DNA from: JBHIER01 sp046760705 [NCBI: bacterium]
GTDB taxonomy: Bacteria > JBHIER01 > G020348925
DNA length: 11,200 nt
Reading direction: 5' to 3'
NCBI GenBank assembly: GCA_046760705.1
Contig: JBHIER010000064.1
Coordinates: 1 to 11,200 of the forward strand
Made by a program: the position numbers and the translations under genes. Under the pieces are notes generated by a model that was not told the origin of the DNA, searched no databases, and saw only the letters and a list, made by a program, of their open reading frames with translations. Shown here piece by piece: positions 2 to 10,583 of the stretch (position 1 is the stretch's first letter; each line of letters starts with the position of its first letter).

Positions 2-997
2 ACAGATGGGGATGGATTCTTAGACGGCGAAGAATTAAAAAACGGCTTTGATCCTTTGGGTCCAGGAGAAATTAAGCCAGAGGAAAAACTATCTGGCGTT
101 GATTTGGCTTTGCTTAGGGGTGAGGTTCTCGAACAACCCAAGACCCAAGAAATCGATGGCTCTTATCTTTTCTTTGGTCTGACCAAAGAAAATGAATTGC
201 TCTCCTGCAATCACCAGGATTGCACCTGGCCTAATTGCCTTTATTTAGGCGCTGTTTCAGAAATACCAGCAGAAGTAGTGCCTTATCCGCCGCCCCAGAG
301 CAGGATGTACACCTTTTGGGGCAATCAAGCAGACAGCCAGGGAATAATAGATGAGCCAGAACCCTGGTTTGCCTACAATCTCTTCTTTCATGTCTCTTCT
401 GAACCTATTTACGAGACATTTGACCTGAGAATGGTTGTTCGGGCTGATTCTGGTTTTTTCTGGACCAAGAAATTAGCTTCTTATGCTCCAGCAGGTGAAT
501 TCAATCCCACGGACTGGATTTTCCTGGGTGGTCGGGATGTTTCTGATTTTGACTTAACCGGGCTCTATGTTTTTATCCAGAAAAGGCATGGCTGTCAGGA
601 ATGCGGTTGGGGTAGATTTTCTATCCTCTGGTCAAAAATCACGGTCAAAGAATATGAAAGTTTGGACGGCTTTATCAGAACCTTTGACGGTGATGAGGTT
701 GGCTGGTCTTTAGCAGATGACTGTGATGACAATGAGGAGACGGTTTATCCAGGGGCGCCAGAGCTTTGCGATGGCAAGGACAATGACTGCGATGAGGAGA
801 TTGACGAAATACAGATGGGCGATGTTAATCAGGACTGCAGCGTTAATATAATTGATGTTGTTCTGGTAATCAGCCATATTTTGGAAGTGGTTCCATTGGA
901 TGCAGATGGTCAGGTCTTGGCTGATCTTAATCAGGATGGAGTGATCAATATCATTGATGCCGCCCTGATTGTCAGCATCATTCTTGGCTCTCCTTAG
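2..997 (+). CDS. C-terminal part of a secreted Ca-binding protein with MopE-type and dockerin-type motifs (5' partial)
   Basis: The reading frame is open through the left edge, so the true start lies outside the window. The TTG at 56 is an internal codon, not a convincing start. The first visible residues (TDGDGFLDGEELKNG) form an Asp-rich thrombospondin-type-3/EF-like Ca loop. A middle region of about 200 residues has no family I recognise. Near the C-terminus (about nt 716-810) is a MopE-type motif: DCDDNEETVYPGAPE followed by LCDGKDNDCDEEID. It is followed by two dockerin-like repeats, GDVNQDCSVNIIDVVLV and ADLNQDGVINIIDAALI, ending at TAG 995-997. These motifs are known from extracellular or surface proteins, and dockerins usually bind cohesins. 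No signal peptide can be seen because the N-terminus is missing. The gene points away from all the others, and its codon use and base composition are AT-richer, which suggests transfer or a contig join near 1000. Function beyond Ca-binding and surface attachment is not inferable. Confidence 0.85.
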   Translation, partial: TDGDGFLDGEELKNGFDPLGPGEIKPEEKLSGVDLALLRGEVLEQPKTQEIDGSYLFFGLTKENELLSCNHQDCTWPNCLYLGAVSEIPAEVVPYPPPQSRMYTFWGNQADSQGIIDEPEPWFAYNLFFHVSSEPIYETFDLRMVVRADSGFFWTKKLASYAPAGEFNPTDWIFLGGRDVSDFDLTGLYVFIQKRHGCQECGWGRFSILWSKITVKEYESLDGFIRTFDGDEVGWSLADDCDDNEETVYPGAPELCDGKDNDCDEEIDEIQMGDVNQDCSVNIIDVVLVISHILEVVPLDADGQVLADLNQDGVINIIDAALIVSIILGSP

Positions 998-1437: not shown

Positions 1438-2793
1438 TTACTCCGGATTACGTTCTTTCAGCGCCAGTTTCTTCATCTTATAGAGCAGGACGTGTCGAGG
1501 GATTTTTAGGAGCTCGGCTGCCTTCGTCTTGTTCCAACCGGTCCGCTCCAGAGCTGCGAGGACGGCCCTCTTCTCCATCTCGGCCATGGAAATACCCTCA
1601 GGGGGAATTTCAGGCACCGTCCTCCTGTGGCCTCCGGCGCGAAGGGAGGGCGGGAGAAGATCGGCTGTGATCACATCGCCCCCAGCTAAGACCGTGGCCC
1701 GCTCAATCACGTTCTCCAGCTCCCGCACGTTTCCCGGCCAATCGTACTCCGCCAGAACCCTCATGGCCCTCTCGTCTATGGTTAAGGCTTTCTCTTTCCC
1801 ATACTTATTCAAGAAATGGTCAACCAGAAGAGGAATGTCCTCCTTCCGCTCCCTCAACGGGGGCAGAAGGATGGGGATGACGCTCAACCGGTAATAGAGA
1901 TCTTCCCGGAACCTCTCCTCCTTGATCAGTCTCTCCAGGTCCTTGTTGGTGGCGGCGATGATGCGGACATCTACTCTGACCGGTGCGGAGGTGCCAACGG
2001 GCTCGAACTCCCGCTCCTGCAAAAATCGGAGGAGTTTGGCCTGGAGGTCGCCCTTCAGATCGGCCACCTCATCGAGAAATATGGTCCCGCCGTCGGCCAG
2101 TTCGAACTTGCCCTTCTTATCTTTGAGTGCTCCGGTGAAGGCCCCTCTGACGTGGCCGAAGAGCTCGCTCTCCATCAGATTGTCCGGGATGGAGGCGCAG
2201 TTGATGGGCGTAAAACGGTGCTCGCTCCTGGGGCTGGTGTAATGGATGGCCCGGGCAATGAGCTCCTTGCCCGTGCCGCTCTCGCCTAAGAGAAGAACCG
2301 TGGCGTCGCTCCCGGCCACCCGGCTGGCCAGCCCGAAGACCTCCTCCATTCTGGCGCTTCGCCCCACGATGTTGTCGAACCGATACCGGTCGGTCAGCTC
2401 TGTCCGCAGGCGAATATTCTCCGAGAGCAACTCCCTCATCCTGATCGCCTTCTCCATGGTGAAGCGGAGCTGCTCGTGGCTGAAGGGCTTGGTGATATAA
2501 TCGGCCGCCCCCAGGCGGCAGGCCTCAACAGCGCTCTCCACCGTGCCGTAAGCGGTGATGAAGATGACGATGGCCTCTCGGTTGAGCCGCTTGACTTCTT
2601 TCAAGACACCCATGCCGTCGAGCCCAGGCATCATCAAGTCGGTCAGAACGATGTCGAAAGAGCCTCTTTTGAAGAGCTCGAGCCCCCGCTCTCCGTCGTG
2701 GGCCGTTGTCACCTGATGGCCGTCCTCGGTCAGCATGTGCTCCAGAACACGGCTCAGACTCCTGTCGTCGTCGATGACTAAGACGTTTCCCAT
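1438..2793 (-). CDS. Sigma-54-dependent response regulator, NtrC/ZraR type (REC-AAA+-Fis HTH)
   Basis: The 451-residue protein has the full family layout. The receiver domain covers about 3-120, with acidic pocket D8-D10, phospho-acceptor D52, T80 and K102. The AAA+ domain covers about 142-375, with Walker A GESGTGKE at 170-177, the sigma-54 contact loop GAFTGA at 217-222 and Walker B IFLDE ending at D241-E242. A Fis-type helix-turn-helix (NKTKAAELLKIPRHVLLYKM) lies near the C-terminus. When phosphorylated it should oligomerise at upstream sites and open sigma-54 promoters. Its start overlaps the 3' end of the kinase gene by 16 bp, so the two form a cognate pair. A GGAGGGG lies about 14 nt before the ATG, rather far, so translational coupling is likely. 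Target genes are not visible in the window. Subfamily (ZraR, AtoC, HydG-like) cannot be fixed by eye. Confidence 0.95.
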   Translation of the reverse strand: MGNVLVIDDDRSLSRVLEHMLTEDGHQVTTAHDGERGLELFKRGSFDIVLTDLMMPGLDGMGVLKEVKRLNREAIVIFITAYGTVESAVEACRLGAADYITKPFSHEQLRFTMEKAIRMRELLSENIRLRTELTDRYRFDNIVGRSARMEEVFGLASRVAGSDATVLLLGESGTGKELIARAIHYTSPRSEHRFTPINCASIPDNLMESELFGHVRGAFTGALKDKKGKFELADGGTIFLDEVADLKGDLQAKLLRFLQEREFEPVGTSAPVRVDVRIIAATNKDLERLIKEERFREDLYYRLSVIPILLPPLRERKEDIPLLVDHFLNKYGKEKALTIDERAMRVLAEYDWPGNVRELENVIERATVLAGGDVITADLLPPSLRAGGHRRTVPEIPPEGISMAEMEKRAVLAALERTGWNKTKAAELLKIPRHVLLYKMKKLALKERNPE

Positions 2794-3932
2794 AGATTTG
2801 TGCGTTTCCCCTCCGCGCAGGGAATGGTGACGGTGACGGTGGTGCCGACCCCCTCCTTGCTCTTCAATCTAATCCCTCCCCGGAGTTGCTGAACGGCGCG
2901 CTTGGCGATGGCCAGTCCCAGACCTGTCCCTTCATCCTTGGTGGTGTAGAACGGTTTGAAGACATTCTCGATCTCCGACTCACAGATCCCCCTGCCAGTA
3001 TCGGAAATGGTCACCGAGGCGAAGGTCTGACTGGTGGTTTCATCTCCCGGGGCGCCTTCTTTCAAAGATGGGGAGATGACGACGCGGCCACCGCCCTCAA
3101 TCGAGGCCATACCATTCAGCAGAACATTGAGCAGCACCTGGCGCAGCAGGTTTTCGTCGGTGAAGACAGTGATGGTCTCGGCCGGCCTGACCACAATCAG
3201 TTCGATCTTCTCTTTGCGGGCCTTTGCGGAGACCAGATCGACCACGGATTGGACCACGTCGCTCAGGTCAAAGTCGGCCATCCTCTGGCGCTTCGGCTTG
3301 GCCAGACCGAGGTAGCTCTCCACCACCTCGTTCAGCCGGTTGACCTCCTTCACCAAGATCTGAAAAAACTCCGCCTGCTTGCTCCCGGGCGGGTACTCCT
3401 TCCTCAAGATGTCGACCGTACCCCGGATGGAGCCGAGGGGATTTCTCACCTCATGGGCCAGGCTGGCGCTCAACTCCCCCAAGACAGCCAACCGGTCAGA
3501 GGTGCGCAGCTGGTCCTCCATGTCCAGGAGTCTTTCGGTCTGCTCAGTCAGTTGTTCGTACGAGCGCTCCAGCTCCCGAGCCGCCTGTTGGTACCTGTTC
3601 CTCTGCTCCCTCACCCGCTGAACCATGAGCCCGGTCATCGAGCCCACCACGTTGAACATCACAATCTCCAAAAATCGGCTGAGGTTCTGCAACCCCCCGC
3701 CCCATTGAAAGATCACGTGGGGCAAGTAGATGAGACTGATGGTCCCCGAGGCGACGATCCCACCCTTCAGGCCATACCAGAAGGCGGCCAGAATGATGGG
3801 GACGTAATAGGATCGGGCGTAAATGGCGTGGAAGTGAGGGTATCTGATACTGGTGAAGTAGTGAAGAAAAGATATGGCCACGATCAGGAGTGCGACTACA
3901 AAGAATCGCTTTCCTTCAACATCCAATTTCAT
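2778..3932 (-). CDS. Membrane sensor histidine kinase, partner of the downstream NtrC-type regulator
   Basis: The 384-residue protein has about three or four hydrophobic segments in the first 105 residues (about 10-30, 42-75, 84-105), a coiled-coil linker (about 106-145), a dimerisation/phospho-acceptor helix with H160 in SLAHEVRNPLGSIRG, and a GHKL ATPase domain. The ATPase domain shows the N box with N273 in LLNVLLNGMASI, G1 DTGRGI (311-316), F box FKPFYTTK and G2 GTGLGL (335-340). There is no PAS or large periplasmic domain, so the signal is probably sensed within or near the membrane. The start has AGAGGAG 7-8 nt upstream. It is expected to autophosphorylate and pass the phosphate to D52 of the regulator with which it overlaps by 16 bp. 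The signal is unknown. Confidence 0.95.
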   Translation of the reverse strand: MKLDVEGKRFFVVALLIVAISFLHYFTSIRYPHFHAIYARSYYVPIILAAFWYGLKGGIVASGTISLIYLPHVIFQWGGGLQNLSRFLEIVMFNVVGSMTGLMVQRVREQRNRYQQAARELERSYEQLTEQTERLLDMEDQLRTSDRLAVLGELSASLAHEVRNPLGSIRGTVDILRKEYPPGSKQAEFFQILVKEVNRLNEVVESYLGLAKPKRQRMADFDLSDVVQSVVDLVSAKARKEKIELIVVRPAETITVFTDENLLRQVLLNVLLNGMASIEGGGRVVISPSLKEGAPGDETTSQTFASVTISDTGRGICESEIENVFKPFYTTKDEGTGLGLAIAKRAVQQLRGGIRLKSKEGVGTTVTVTIPCAEGKRTNLWETS

Positions 3933-7930: not shown

Positions 7931-8239
7931 TCACCTCCGTCTTCGTCTCTTGAGAGGCTTGTGCAGCGCTTCCTTCAACAGCTTGCCCGGCTTAAAGTGG
8001 GTCTTCCTGCGGGCCGGCACGTAAATGATCTGCCCTGTGCGCGGGTTGCGGGCGGCGGGCTTGGGCTTGGTATCCTTCACTTCGAAGACCCCAAAACCCC
8101 GTATTTCAATGCGGTTGCCGGCGATCAATGTATCCCGCATGGCCGCAAACAGAGCATTCACCATCTTTGCAGACACGTTCTTCCTAAACCCGGTGACCTT
8201 GCTGACCTTCAAAGCCAAATCCTTTTTGGTTGTTGTCAT
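7931..8239 (-). CDS. HU/IHF-family DNA-bending protein
   Basis: The 102-residue protein starts at ATG 8237-8239 with GAGGAGG 2-3 nt upstream. It matches the HU/IHF fold over its whole length: N-terminal helices (DLALKVSKVTGFRK), the dimer segment GNRIEIRGFGVFEVKD (41-56), the DNA-wrapping arm with the intercalating proline in ARNPRTGQ (63-70, P66), and the closing helix FKPGKLLKEAL. The last residues, KPLKRRRRR, extend about eight residues past the usual end and are strongly basic, which may add nonspecific DNA contact. HU or IHF versus a lineage-specific paralogue cannot be decided. IHF-like bending commonly helps sigma-54 promoters, and this gene lies just downstream of such a promoter, though it has its own strong sigma-70 promoter. 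Confidence 0.93.
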   Translation of the reverse strand: MTTTKKDLALKVSKVTGFRKNVSAKMVNALFAAMRDTLIAGNRIEIRGFGVFEVKDTKPKPAARNPRTGQIIYVPARRKTHFKPGKLLKEALHKPLKRRRRR

Positions 8240-8300
8240 GACCTCCTCTCTTTTTTAAGGTCTAAATCAGATTAAATGTTTTATTATTTTCAAGTTACAG

Positions 8301-8332
8301 ATTATAATAATACAAAGTTTCCACCTTGTCAA
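8301..8332 (-). promoter_or_regulatory. Strong sigma-70 promoter of the HU/IHF-family gene
   Basis: On the minus strand a perfect -35 TTGACA (8327-8332) is followed after 17 nt by TATTAT (8304-8309). A perfect TATAAT lies 3 nt further on (8301-8306). The surrounding DNA is AT-rich. Transcription would start about 55 nt before the start codon. Confidence 0.75.
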
Positions 8333-8491
8333 GCAAAATTTCATTTTTTTCTCATCTCTGAACATCGAGGCGATCACGAGGGCGGCGGGTAGGATCTCTC
8401 TTGCCCTCCCCAAAAGATTTAGGAGGGGAAAGGCCTGGGCCGGCGTTGACTGTGGGGAGAGATGGTTCTGAGTTTAGACGCACTCCTGGGC

Positions 8492-8517
8492 TGGTCTTTG
8501 CTCTTTGCTAAAGACCA
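8492..8517. other. 8-bp perfect hairpin in the gap between the HU promoter and the putative sRNA
   Basis: TGGTCTTT (8492-8499) pairs with AAAGACCA (8510-8517) around a 10-nt loop. There is no T-run on either side, so it is not a standard terminator. It could be a processing site, a backup end for the putative sRNA, or a protein site. The rest of 8340-8590 shows only a weak CCCTCC/GGAGGG hairpin near 8410 and a palindrome GTTAATTAAC at 8557-8566, and no gene. Confidence 0.4.
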
Positions 8518-8594
8518 TCCACAATCGGCCGCCCGCCCAGGCAGGGGGATCTATAGGTTAATTAACGATCATCCCAAAAAGTGTCCGGCAAGAC

Positions 8595-8767
8595 AGAAAA
8601 GTAAGACAGAGCAGGCTTTCACGCAGGGCGGAGAGGAACAGATAGATTTGGGGGTGAGTTCACGGTGCGCTTGAAGCAACCCTGGCTACTCACCTGCTCG
8701 GTCTTACTCTCTGAGGCTACGTTGAACGGCCTTCTTATCAGTGCGCAAAACCTCAACAGACAATAAG
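8595..8767 (-). ncRNA. Predicted sigma-54-dependent structured small RNA (about 170 nt)
   Basis: The start is inferred 12 nt past the -12 element of the promoter at 8778-8793. The 5' part can form a stem between 8751-8755 and 8712-8716 (TGAGG/CCTCA in the RNA sense). The 3' part is closed by a helix pairing 8601-8615 with 8693-8707, with 14 of 15 pairs and one mismatch, and minus-strand TTTTCT follows at once (8600-8595), as at an intrinsic end. An alternative inner helix pairs 8653-8659 with 8688-8694 (GGTGAGT/ACTCACC). A C/U-rich, apparently unpaired segment containing TTCCTCTCC (about 8630-8640) is complementary to Shine-Dalgarno sequences. No convincing ORF is present. I do not recognise the family; 6S, SRP and tmRNA signatures are absent. 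It could also be an untranslated leader that continues to the HU gene. Confidence 0.5.
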
Positions 8768-8777
8768 AACTCAACAG

Positions 8778-8793
8778 TGCGAAAAGCGTGCCA
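8778..8793 (-). promoter_or_regulatory. Sigma-54 (-24/-12) promoter
   Basis: On the minus strand the site reads TGGCACGCTTTTCGCA. The -24 part (TGGCACG) is a perfect match to the consensus, the GG-N10-GC spacing is exact, and the -12 part TCGCA differs from TTGCA by one base. It lies 122 bp downstream of the nearest inverted-repeat site and on the same strand as the adjacent sigma-54 activator gene. It would drive the small RNA; no protein gene starts within 500 bp downstream. Confidence 0.78.
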
Positions 8794-8914
8794 AAGGTGG
8801 CGAGCCTCTCCTTTGAGATTGGGCCGTAATGACGTAATAACCTGTAAATATTGATATTAAATAGAAAAGCGGATCAGGCGGGAAGAGATTTTCGACGTGA
8901 GGAACAGGAGGGGA

Positions 8915-8935
8915 ACTGTCAACAAAGTTGACAGT
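8915..8935. promoter_or_regulatory. Upstream activating site 1: perfect inverted repeat
   Basis: ACTGTCAAC and GTTGACAGT form a perfect 9-bp inverted repeat around AAA (centre 8925). The core CTGTCAA-N5-TTGACAG recurs at 8982 and 9004. Its centre is about 158 bp upstream of the predicted sigma-54 start, a usual position for enhancer-binding proteins. The half-site spacing is like that of NtrC sites, but the sequence is different. Confidence 0.72.
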
Positions 8936-8981
8936 AGAAATCGCAATTAGCCGTAAGATACTAAAAAATTGAAGCTTGCTT

Positions 8982-9000
8982 CTGTCAACCCAGTTTACAC
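8982..9000. promoter_or_regulatory. Upstream activating site 2: imperfect copy
   Basis: CTGTCAA at 8982-8988, N5, then TTTACAC at 8994-9000. The left half-site is perfect and the right matches 5 of 7. Its centre is 66 bp from site 1 and 22 bp from site 3. Confidence 0.6.
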
Positions 9001-9003
9001 AGG

Positions 9004-9022
9004 CTGTCAAATGAGTTGACAG
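9004..9022. promoter_or_regulatory. Upstream activating site 3: perfect half-sites
   Basis: CTGTCAA at 9004-9010 and TTGACAG at 9016-9022 are separated by 5 nt (centre 9013). It ends 7 bp before the stop codon of the GAF activator gene, so the site cluster starts right at the end of that gene. The 22-bp step from site 2 is about two helical turns, putting both on the same DNA face. Confidence 0.7.
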
Positions 9023-9029
9023 ACCGCTA

Positions 9030-10583
9030 TCATATCCCCATCTCTTTGAGCATTTTGATCAGCCCTTGGCGGCTGACACCCAAAACTTGGGCAGCTTTTG
9101 TTCTGTTGTCTCCATGTTTTTCCAATGCCTCCACAATCGCCCGATGCTTCACCTCTTGCAGGATATTCTTGAGTGTCTTCCCCTCGGTGGAGAGCGGCGG
9201 AAGTTGGCTCGTGTGAAGGATCTCCTCCGGCAAATGGCTCGGCCCGATCTGCTCATCTTCGACAGAGCTTAAGGCTACCGCGCGCTCCACCACATTCTTC
9301 AGCTCCCGAACATTTCCCGGCCAATGGTACAGCTCCAGCAACCTCATCGCCTCGGAGCTGAAACCCGGCAGCTTTTTCCCTGTCACCTTCCGAAAAGCGT
9401 TCAAGAAATGGTCTGCCAGCGAGGGGATATCTTCCTTACGATTACGCAGAGGGGGTATGTTCACCGTGACAACATTGAGGCGGTAGAAGAGGTCTTCTCG
9501 AAATATGCCCTGAGCAACGAGGTCTTTCAGATTCTTGCTGCTGGCGCTGATGATCCGGACATCGATCTTTTTCGCCACCGTAGCCCCCACAGGGCGGATT
9601 TCCCTCTCTTGAAGAGCGCGAAGCAGCTTGCTCTGAAGAGTTGGACCCATATTGGTGATCTCATCCAGAAAGAGGGTGCCTCCGCTGGCCTGCTGAAAGA
9701 GGCCGGGTTTATCTTTCACCGCTCCGGTAAAGGCACCTCTAACGTAGCCGAAGAGCTCGCTCTCCAGCAGACTTTCGGGAATGGCTCCGCACTCCACCGG
9801 GACGAAGGGGCCCTCTCTCCTGGGTCCGTTATAATGGATAGCTCTGGCCAACAGCTCCTTCCCGGTGCCGCTCTCGCCCTGAAGGACGACATTGGCTTCG
9901 CTGGATACAATATGTTCCAAAAGGGCGAACACGGGCCCCATTGACGGACTTTGACCGATAATACCCTCGAACTGATACCTTCCCCTCACCTCCTTTTTCA
10001 GAAAGATATTCTCCCTGGACACTTTCTCAAAAAGTCGGGCGCTCTCAATGATTTGCGCCGACTGGGATGAGAAAATAGAGACAAGTCTGACGTCGTCGGC
10101 AGTGAAGGGGCCTCCTCTCTTGTTGCACAGATTAATCGCCCCAACCACCCGGCCTTTTGAAATGAGGGGCACGCTCAGTACAGTCTTCATCTTGTAATCT
10201 TTCCCCCGGAATCCGGGGAACCGGTGGTCTCGGCACAGATCTTCAACGAGCAGCACCTCTCTGTTGTGCAACACCCAACCAGTGAGGCTCCGGTCGACCT
10301 TGAACGTAATGCCATGAAGTTCGGACTGCTCCCCCCGAACCAGGGTGGTCATTCCACTGGGTGCCTCCTCATCGACGATCGATATGGAGCCCTGAGTTGC
10401 ATCGGTCAGAACGATGGCCTCATCCACGATGATCTTCAATATCTTATCCACCTCCATCGTGGAGCCAATCAGGCCGGCCAGCCTGTTCAGCGCCTCCAGT
10501 TCCCTCACCCGTCGGTTCAGGCGGTCGAGCTCATCCCCTTGCTCTGGCGACTTTGATCTGTCCCTTCTCCGAAATGTAACCAT
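9030..10583 (-). CDS. Sigma-54 activator with N-terminal GAF domain (NifA/NorR/FhlA-like architecture)
   Basis: The 517-residue protein is counted from ATG 10581-10583, which has GGAG 3 nt upstream. The open frame extends 43 codons further, but that part overlaps the small ORF upstream, is not protein-like and lacks a ribosome site. A short coiled-coil (about 15-38) leads into a GAF domain (about 30-185), then the AAA+ domain with Walker A GESGTGKE (236-243), the sigma-54 contact loop GAFTGA (283-288), Walker B LFLDE (304-308) and WPGNVREL (421-428). A Fis-type HTH (NRTKAAQVLGVSRQGLIKML) lies at 493-512. There is no receiver domain, so control is by a ligand or partner of the GAF domain (a single Cys, C153, lies within its last strand region). 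Its likely sites and target promoter lie immediately downstream (8778-9022). Confidence 0.94.
   Translation of the reverse strand: MVTFRRRDRSKSPEQGDELDRLNRRVRELEALNRLAGLIGSTMEVDKILKIIVDEAIVLTDATQGSISIVDEEAPSGMTTLVRGEQSELHGITFKVDRSLTGWVLHNREVLLVEDLCRDHRFPGFRGKDYKMKTVLSVPLISKGRVVGAINLCNKRGGPFTADDVRLVSIFSSQSAQIIESARLFEKVSRENIFLKKEVRGRYQFEGIIGQSPSMGPVFALLEHIVSSEANVVLQGESGTGKELLARAIHYNGPRREGPFVPVECGAIPESLLESELFGYVRGAFTGAVKDKPGLFQQASGGTLFLDEITNMGPTLQSKLLRALQEREIRPVGATVAKKIDVRIISASSKNLKDLVAQGIFREDLFYRLNVVTVNIPPLRNRKEDIPSLADHFLNAFRKVTGKKLPGFSSEAMRLLELYHWPGNVRELKNVVERAVALSSVEDEQIGPSHLPEEILHTSQLPPLSTEGKTLKNILQEVKHRAIVEALEKHGDNRTKAAQVLGVSRQGLIKMLKEMGI

What the first reader, a model, noticed from the sequence alone, without database searches (positions are those of the whole stretch)
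8595..9022. Activator-linked sigma-54 small RNA unit
Seen directly: a near-consensus -24/-12 promoter (TGGCACG perfect, GG-N10-GC exact) on the minus strand, preceded by three inverted-repeat sites, followed by a structured region closed by a 15-bp helix (one mismatch) and a T-run, with no credible ORF. The gene for a GAF-type sigma-54 activator ends 7 bp before the site cluster and points the same way. Known: enhancer-dependent sigma-54 promoters driving regulatory RNAs are rare (Qrr under LuxO, CrcZ under CbrB, Pxr in Myxococcus). Inference: this is a compact ligand-sensing activator plus sRNA switch. I see no resemblance to the named RNAs, so it may be a new family.
Basis: partly seen in the sequence, partly recalled or inferred. 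Interest (0 to 1): 0.82.

Follow-up and report, generated by a model that had tools for sequence, protein, structure and literature searches.

The report
Sigma-54 promoter beside a candidate RNA
Just after the gene for a sigma-54 activator lies a well-formed cluster of activator sites and a promoter pointing into DNA without a recognised gene but with a conserved RNA-like hairpin, which looks like another case of the known arrangement in which a regulator switches on a small RNA encoded next door.

Summary
The gene upstream is a GAF-AAA-Fis activator with an intact GAFTGA motif. One relative with the same locus was found (L001; no other genome of its phylum is held): activator 68% identical, same order activator, gap, HU/IHF-like gene, M23 peptidase. 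My reading: a sigma-54-dependent RNA starting near 8768 and running through this element, about 50% likely. The main rival is that the promoter serves the HU/M23 genes through a long leader. An activator gene beside its sigma-54 sRNA is a known arrangement (crcZ directly downstream of cbrB; qrr1 beside luxO), so this is a new candidate member of a known kind.

The parts
9030..10583 (-). Gene for sigma-54 activator: GAF + AAA+ (GAFTGA motif intact, by eye) + Fis-type HTH; start at 10583 is my guess, the open frame runs from 10712
   Evidence: Pfam GAF_2 1.6e-20, Sigma54_activat 1.8e-66, HTH_8 4.1e-07; best NCBIfam match NifA 361 bits, below its cut-off 528.85
9004..9022 (-). Palindromic upstream site 3 (1 mismatch)
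8982..9000 (-). Palindromic upstream site 2 (2 mismatches)
8916..8934 (-). Palindromic upstream site 1 (perfect)
8842..8860 (-). AT-rich stretch between sites and promoter with an imperfect IHF-like motif (TATCAATATTTAC); recalled consensus, significance not tested
   Evidence: sequence read; inference
8778..8793 (-). -24/-12 sigma-54-type promoter TGGCACGCTTTTCGCA; predicted start about 8768
8600..8708 (-).
8434..8570 (-). Conserved RNA-like element: closing helix CCUGGGC..GCCCAGG; inner helix GAUGG/CCAUC in the consensus fold only; invariant 3' stretch AACCAUCUCUCCC
   Evidence: 85 of 137 positions identical to L001:7185-7321; fold of 8425-8555 z -5.2; alifold energy reached by 1 of 500 column shuffles
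8304..8332 (-). Sigma-70-type promoter before the HU/IHF-like gene (TTGACA-17-TATTAT), aligned with a similar one in L001
7931..8239 (-). HU/IHF-like DNA-binding protein gene, downstream neighbour, order conserved in L001
6859..7881 (-). M23 peptidase gene, next neighbour, order conserved in L001

Best explanation
The activator encoded at 9030-10583 (minus), when its GAF domain receives a signal, binds the three phased palindromes just past its own stop codon, loops to sigma-54 polymerase at the -24/-12 site, and starts a non-coding transcript near 8768. The RNA carries a 5' hairpin domain that the relative lacks (8600-8708) and a conserved 3' module (8434-8570) that is probably the functional part. 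Its invariant CU-rich stretch (UCUCCC) is unpaired in the consensus fold and is a plausible base-pairing or protein-binding site. Shown: sites, promoter match, helix, conserved element and conserved neighbourhood. Inferred: binding, transcription, start, end, strand and any target.
For: Three near-perfect phased palindromes. By far the best sigma-54 site in the window, correctly oriented and about 120 bp past the nearest palindrome. Neither ORF of 60 aa or more wholly inside the gap has a Pfam match. Conserved 137-nt element; folds with z -5.2 and -3.7 in the two species, 0 of 200 shuffles as good each, and a consensus energy reached by 1 of 500 column shuffles. Degenerate palindromes also follow the orthologous activator: with a matrix built from the window's three sites, the four best scores in the first 300 nt were reached in 1, 0, 0 and 0 of 300 simulations, and over the whole gap in 1, 3, 0 and 2 of 300 (in the first-300 list the fourth overlaps the second). 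Conserved order activator, gap, HU, M23. The HU gene has its own sigma-70-type promoter after the element in both, so the sigma-54 transcript is not needed for it. The order activator, then sigma-54 sRNA has precedent in cbrB-crcZ.
Against: Only one other locus was found. It shows no recognisable -24/-12 promoter between activator and element: the best matches there score 7.2 or less on the sense strand, even allowing one base more or less. Covariation is thin: one pair of 18 changed on both sides, no better than its shuffles (248 of 500). The inner helix of the consensus is absent from the window's own minimum-energy fold, which pairs part of the CU-rich stretch differently. The reverse strand folds almost as well (-22.0 against -23.4), so the RNA strand is not settled. 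No terminator was found in the window gap. The element lies 459 nt after the activator here and 672 nt in L001. In G001 another activator with a perfect sigma-54 site just downstream precedes a protein gene.
Confidence: 0.5

Rival explanations
1. The sigma-54 promoter is an inducible promoter of the downstream HU/IHF-like and M23 genes. The 529-nt stretch from 8768 to the HU start codon is a structured 5' leader, and element 8434-8570 is a cis-acting part of it.
For: Activator-HU-M23 order is kept in L001. No terminator was detected in the window gap. In G001 another activator is followed by a perfect sigma-54 site and then a protein gene that by eye is an HD-GYP response regulator.
Against: A good sigma-70-type promoter, present in both species, lies between the element and the HU gene, so the element is outside that mRNA's leader. 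A 529-nt leader is long.
Confidence: 0.2
2. The conserved element 8434-8570 is an RNA or DNA element with its own promoter, unrelated to the sigma-54 promoter; the sigma-54 site serves some short transcript or is a relic.
For: No recognisable sigma-54 promoter in L001 although the element and degenerate sites are kept. Conservation starts at 8570, about 200 nt after the predicted start, and includes 28-29 nt outside the hairpin.
Against: The scan shows no sigma-70-type promoter just upstream of the element in the window. The palindromes and the -24/-12 site in the window look too good for a relic.
Confidence: 0.17
3. The conserved element encodes a small protein on the opposite strand (70-aa frame 8462-8674 plus; 52 aa in L001) or on the sense strand.
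For: The plus-strand peptides share the stretch ARPGRGxYRLIxD and the HP before it. In the 5' block that frame has 5 synonymous and 5 non-synonymous codon changes (41 of 1000 shuffles as extreme). The 3' block favours a sense frame (4 to 1; 9 of 1000) and another antisense frame (3 to 1; 6 of 1000); the same sense frame over the whole element has 8 synonymous, 20 non-synonymous and 3 stop-involving codons (17 of 1000).
Against: The two blocks favour different frames; the sense frame contains stops in both species, and the middle is not conserved at protein level. No Pfam match for the 70-aa frame. 18 frame tests were made, so these values are weak.
Confidence: 0.06
4. Chance: sigma-54-like site and helix without function.
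For: Promoter and helix are not recognisable in the one relative.
Against: Each feature alone is rare in shuffled or simulated sequence: 0 of 200, 0.06 per window, 0 of 40.
Confidence: 0.07

Closest known systems
CbrB-CrcZ (Pseudomonas)
   Same: Sigma-54 activator gene immediately followed by a non-coding RNA gene that it activates (PMC10562864, one passage) through several phased subsites with help from IHF (PMC6296734, passages).
   Different: CbrB belongs to a two-component system (recalled), here a GAF-domain activator; CbrB subsites are described as non-palindromic and CrcZ as sequestering Crc. I did not look for Crc/Hfq-binding motifs here. No Rfam match here.
LuxO-Qrr (Vibrio)
   Same: Sigma-54 activator beside an sRNA gene it controls (PMC8043402, passages).
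   Different: qrr1 is upstream of luxO and points the other way; no Rfam match here.
QseF/GlrR-GlmY (Enterobacteria)
   Same: Sigma-54-dependent sRNA under one activator (PMC7073468 and PMC3162934, passages).
   Different: glmY has an overlapping sigma-70 promoter and works with RapZ; no Rfam match here.
NifA-type activators
   Same: GAF + AAA+ + Fis HTH; best NCBIfam match. NifA sites are TGT-N10-ACA (recalled).
   Different: 361 bits against a cut-off of 528.85; the palindromes here are TGT-N11-ACA; I noticed no nif gene in the window but did not search for nif families as such.

Membership tests
Sigma-54-dependent regulatory RNA (general kind) | -24/-12 promoter with upstream activator sites | tested here: met
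   In the window only; promoter not recognised in L001
Sigma-54-dependent regulatory RNA (general kind) | Transcript that needs rpoN and the activator | not testable with these tools
   No expression data
Sigma-54-dependent regulatory RNA (general kind) | Conserved non-coding RNA downstream of the promoter | tested here: inconclusive
   137-nt element conserved in 2 sequences, 1 covarying pair of 18, not above shuffles
CrcZ, Qrr, GlmY or any other Rfam family | Covariance-model match | tested here: not met
   0 of 4227 families at gathering score over the whole window; at E up to 5 over 8230-9030 one match, to a KCNQ1OT1 lncRNA model on the plus strand, 13.2 bits against a gathering score of 70, E 0.031, taken as chance
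6S RNA | Match to RF00013 | tested here: not met
   No match in the window; none in G001 at E up to 10. The control rang in 8 of 14 genomes but over the cut-off in only 4, so absence from G001 is weak evidence
NifA | Score above the NCBIfam equivalog cut-off | tested here: not met
   361 against 528.85 bits

The most novel reading that the evidence does not exclude
Element 8434-8570 is the founding member of an undescribed RNA family, so far seen only in this window and in one genome whose phylum has no other held member, and forms the functional core of a sigma-54-switched regulatory RNA kept together with its own GAF-type activator and an HU/M23 gene pair. Since no 6S RNA was detected in that genome, a global, polymerase- or nucleoid-directed role is not excluded.
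Probability: 0.3. Interest if true: 0.58.

Novelty: new member of a known kind. Interest (0 to 1): 0.42.

Why it matters
If true, it extends the activator-beside-sRNA sigma-54 arrangement, which I know from Pseudomonas, Vibrio and enterobacteria, to an almost unsampled lineage with a GAF-type rather than two-component activator, and gives a short, testable RNA element with no known relatives. It would be a further hint that sigma-54 RNA switches arise repeatedly beside their activators.

Tried and rejected
Looked for the same locus elsewhere: one scan of genome contigs with the GAF part gave 1 relative among 124 pattern matches. Activator search in genomes related to G001: 1 of 98 at E<=1e-150 (G001 itself; at most 15 candidates scored per genome) and 3 of 290 at E<=1e-125 (G001 and two genomes at 43-45% identity, L009 and L010, whose surroundings I did not examine; at most 5 candidates scored per genome in the rows shown). 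The second G001 copy (61%, L003) has a convergent gene directly behind it, so it is not this arrangement. RNA model R1: 3 of 386 genomes at E<=0.1, stricter filters, of which only G001 (a training sequence) is convincing; G158 (20.5 bits) lies beside unrelated genes, G340 (19.3 bits) was not examined; 2 of 41 at E<=1, of which G013 (0.594) was not examined; 0 of 40 in the phylum of G074 at E<=0.01, where no genome known to match was present (the sets overlap). In the phylum of G001 only G001 itself is held. No match in viral contigs by an exact RNA pattern or by the activator, none in plasmids.

Searched G001 for more copies of the palindrome: 2 places at 1 mismatch, equal to the control, so no wider regulon by this test. 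Consensus sigma-54 pattern in G001 at up to 1 mismatch: 21 hits against 13 for the reversed control, 4 hits perfect. Rejected Rfam families, 6S and a single conserved reading frame. A manual, structure-guided alignment gave z -6.8 but is biased towards the structure; I rely on the MAFFT one (z -2.9). The sigma-54 consensus and matrix and the IHF consensus are recalled, not from a database.

Full report
What is there. On the minus strand the window holds an activator gene (9030-10583, open frame to 10712) with GAF, AAA+ and Fis-type HTH domains and, by eye, the GAFTGA motif (translation). Seven bases after its stop begins a cluster of three 19-bp palindromes, CTGTCAAC-N3-GTTGACAG, with 1, 2 and 0 mismatches; at up to 3 mismatches no others occur in the window and 0 of 200 shuffles gave three. 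Their centres are 22 and 66 bp apart, about 2 and 6 turns. About 120 bp further on is TGGCACGCTTTTCGCA (8793-8778), the only site in the window with exact GG-N10-GC and at least 10 of 12 consensus letters, well ahead of the next site with a recalled weight matrix (18.2 against 11.6). The distances put the sites 157-245 bp before a start at 8768, ordinary for sigma-54 systems (recalled). Downstream, arms 8600-8615 and 8693-8708 pair in 15 of 16 positions; none of 40 simulated windows had any such pair.

What is conserved. The window's own genome is not held. One relative was found, L001 from CP070758.1, labelled Gemmatimonadota bin29; it is G001, the only held genome of its phylum. Its activator is 68-69% identical, and is followed by a gap, an HU-like gene and an M23 peptidase in the same order as in the window. 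The ends of that element are conserved (43 of 56 and 28 of 33 positions) and the middle is not (14 of 48), as counted. The ends pair in the consensus: a closing helix CCUGGGC/GCCCAGG extended by three pairs, one of them changed between G-C and A-U, and an inner helix GAUGG/CCAUC that never varies. The closing helix is in both single-sequence folds; the inner helix is not in the window's own minimum-energy fold, which has a different tip. Stretches 8425-8555 and L001 7195-7335, chosen after seeing the conservation, fold with z -5.2 and -3.7, each with 0 of 200 shuffles as good; a shifted window stretch, 8390-8500, does not (z 0.1). The consensus energy of the MAFFT alignment was reached by 1 of 500 column shuffles.

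What is against a simple story. In L001 the palindromes are present only in degenerate form (best score 15.6 against 23-26 in the window; the four best scores were reached by 1, 3, 0 and 2 of 300 simulations over the whole gap and by 1, 0, 0 and 0 over its first 300 nt). No -24/-12 site can be recognised between activator and element: the best there score 7.2 or less on the sense strand, also allowing one base more or less; the best in the whole gap, 11.2 for TCGGCACGCTTTTTTTCA and 10.0 for ATGGCCCTGCACTGCA, both need a changed spacing and lie after the element, and the first lacks the GC. Covariation is one pair out of 18 and not above its shuffle control. The opposite strand folds almost equally well. 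A coding explanation was tested: the 5' block mildly favours a plus-strand frame and the 3' block other frames, and the sense frame has stops; with 18 frame tests I count it as not supported but not excluded.

Context. In G001 the sigma-54 consensus at up to one mismatch gives 21 hits against 13 for the reversed control, four of them perfect. One perfect site lies just behind another activator gene and in front of a gene that by eye encodes an HD-GYP response regulator. So activator followed by a sigma-54 site probably occurs elsewhere in this lineage, and there the target seems to be a protein gene. In the window the nearest gene after the promoter is HU/IHF-like, 529 nt away, with a sigma-70-type promoter at 8332-8304 that aligns with a similar one in L001. 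That favours a separate RNA over a leader but does not decide it.

Known relatives. No Rfam family reaches its gathering score, and the one sub-threshold match is taken as chance. The arrangement has precedent: crcZ lies immediately downstream of cbrB (PMC10562864, one passage) and is driven through several phased CbrB subsites with IHF help (PMC6296734, passages); qrr1 lies beside luxO (PMC8043402, passages); glmY has a sigma-54 promoter under QseF (PMC7073468, passages; PMC3162934, passages). A full-text search for the phrase 'RpoN-dependent small RNA' gave no paper, which says little; a search for the accession CP070758 gave none either.

Verdict. The best reading is a sigma-54-dependent RNA of roughly 335-380 nt with the conserved module at its 3' end (confidence 0.5; both ends inferred). 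It resembles CbrB-CrcZ in layout, but matches neither that nor any other curated family.

Noticed in passing
G001 near 1401151-1401395 (L021): Another activator gene followed by a perfect sigma-54 site (TGGCACGAATGTTGCA) and, on the same strand, a gene that by eye encodes an HD-GYP response regulator: a probable protein-coding sigma-54 target of this lineage.
   Followed up: partly
G001 3822934-3822949 and 3444056-3444071 (L022, L024): Sigma-54-like sites (1 and 0 mismatches) on the strand of, and downstream of (the second about 1.6 kb), two further activator genes; what they serve is unclear because the nearest long frames lie on the other strand.
   Followed up: partly
G001 (whole genome): No 6S RNA match at E up to 10; the control search rang in 8 of 14 known genomes, over the cut-off in 4.
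   Followed up: partly
window 8842-8860: AT-rich stretch with an imperfect IHF-like motif between palindromes and promoter, while the next gene encodes an HU/IHF-like protein (best NCBIfam match IHF alpha, below cut-off).
   Followed up: no
L001 7380-7397: TCGGCACGCTTTTTTTCA shares the 11-mer GGCACGCTTTT with the window's promoter but lies after the conserved element and lacks the -12 GC.
   Followed up: partly
L001 6504-6528: The only terminator-like hairpin called in L001 6500-8000 spans the activator's stop codon and overlaps its first degenerate palindrome (1.1 expected from shuffles).
   Followed up: no
window 1438-3932: A histidine kinase and NtrC-type sigma-54 response regulator gene pair; a second sigma-54 system in the window.
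   Followed up: no
window 2-997: C-terminal part of a protein with dockerin type I and MopE metal-binding motifs.
   Followed up: no
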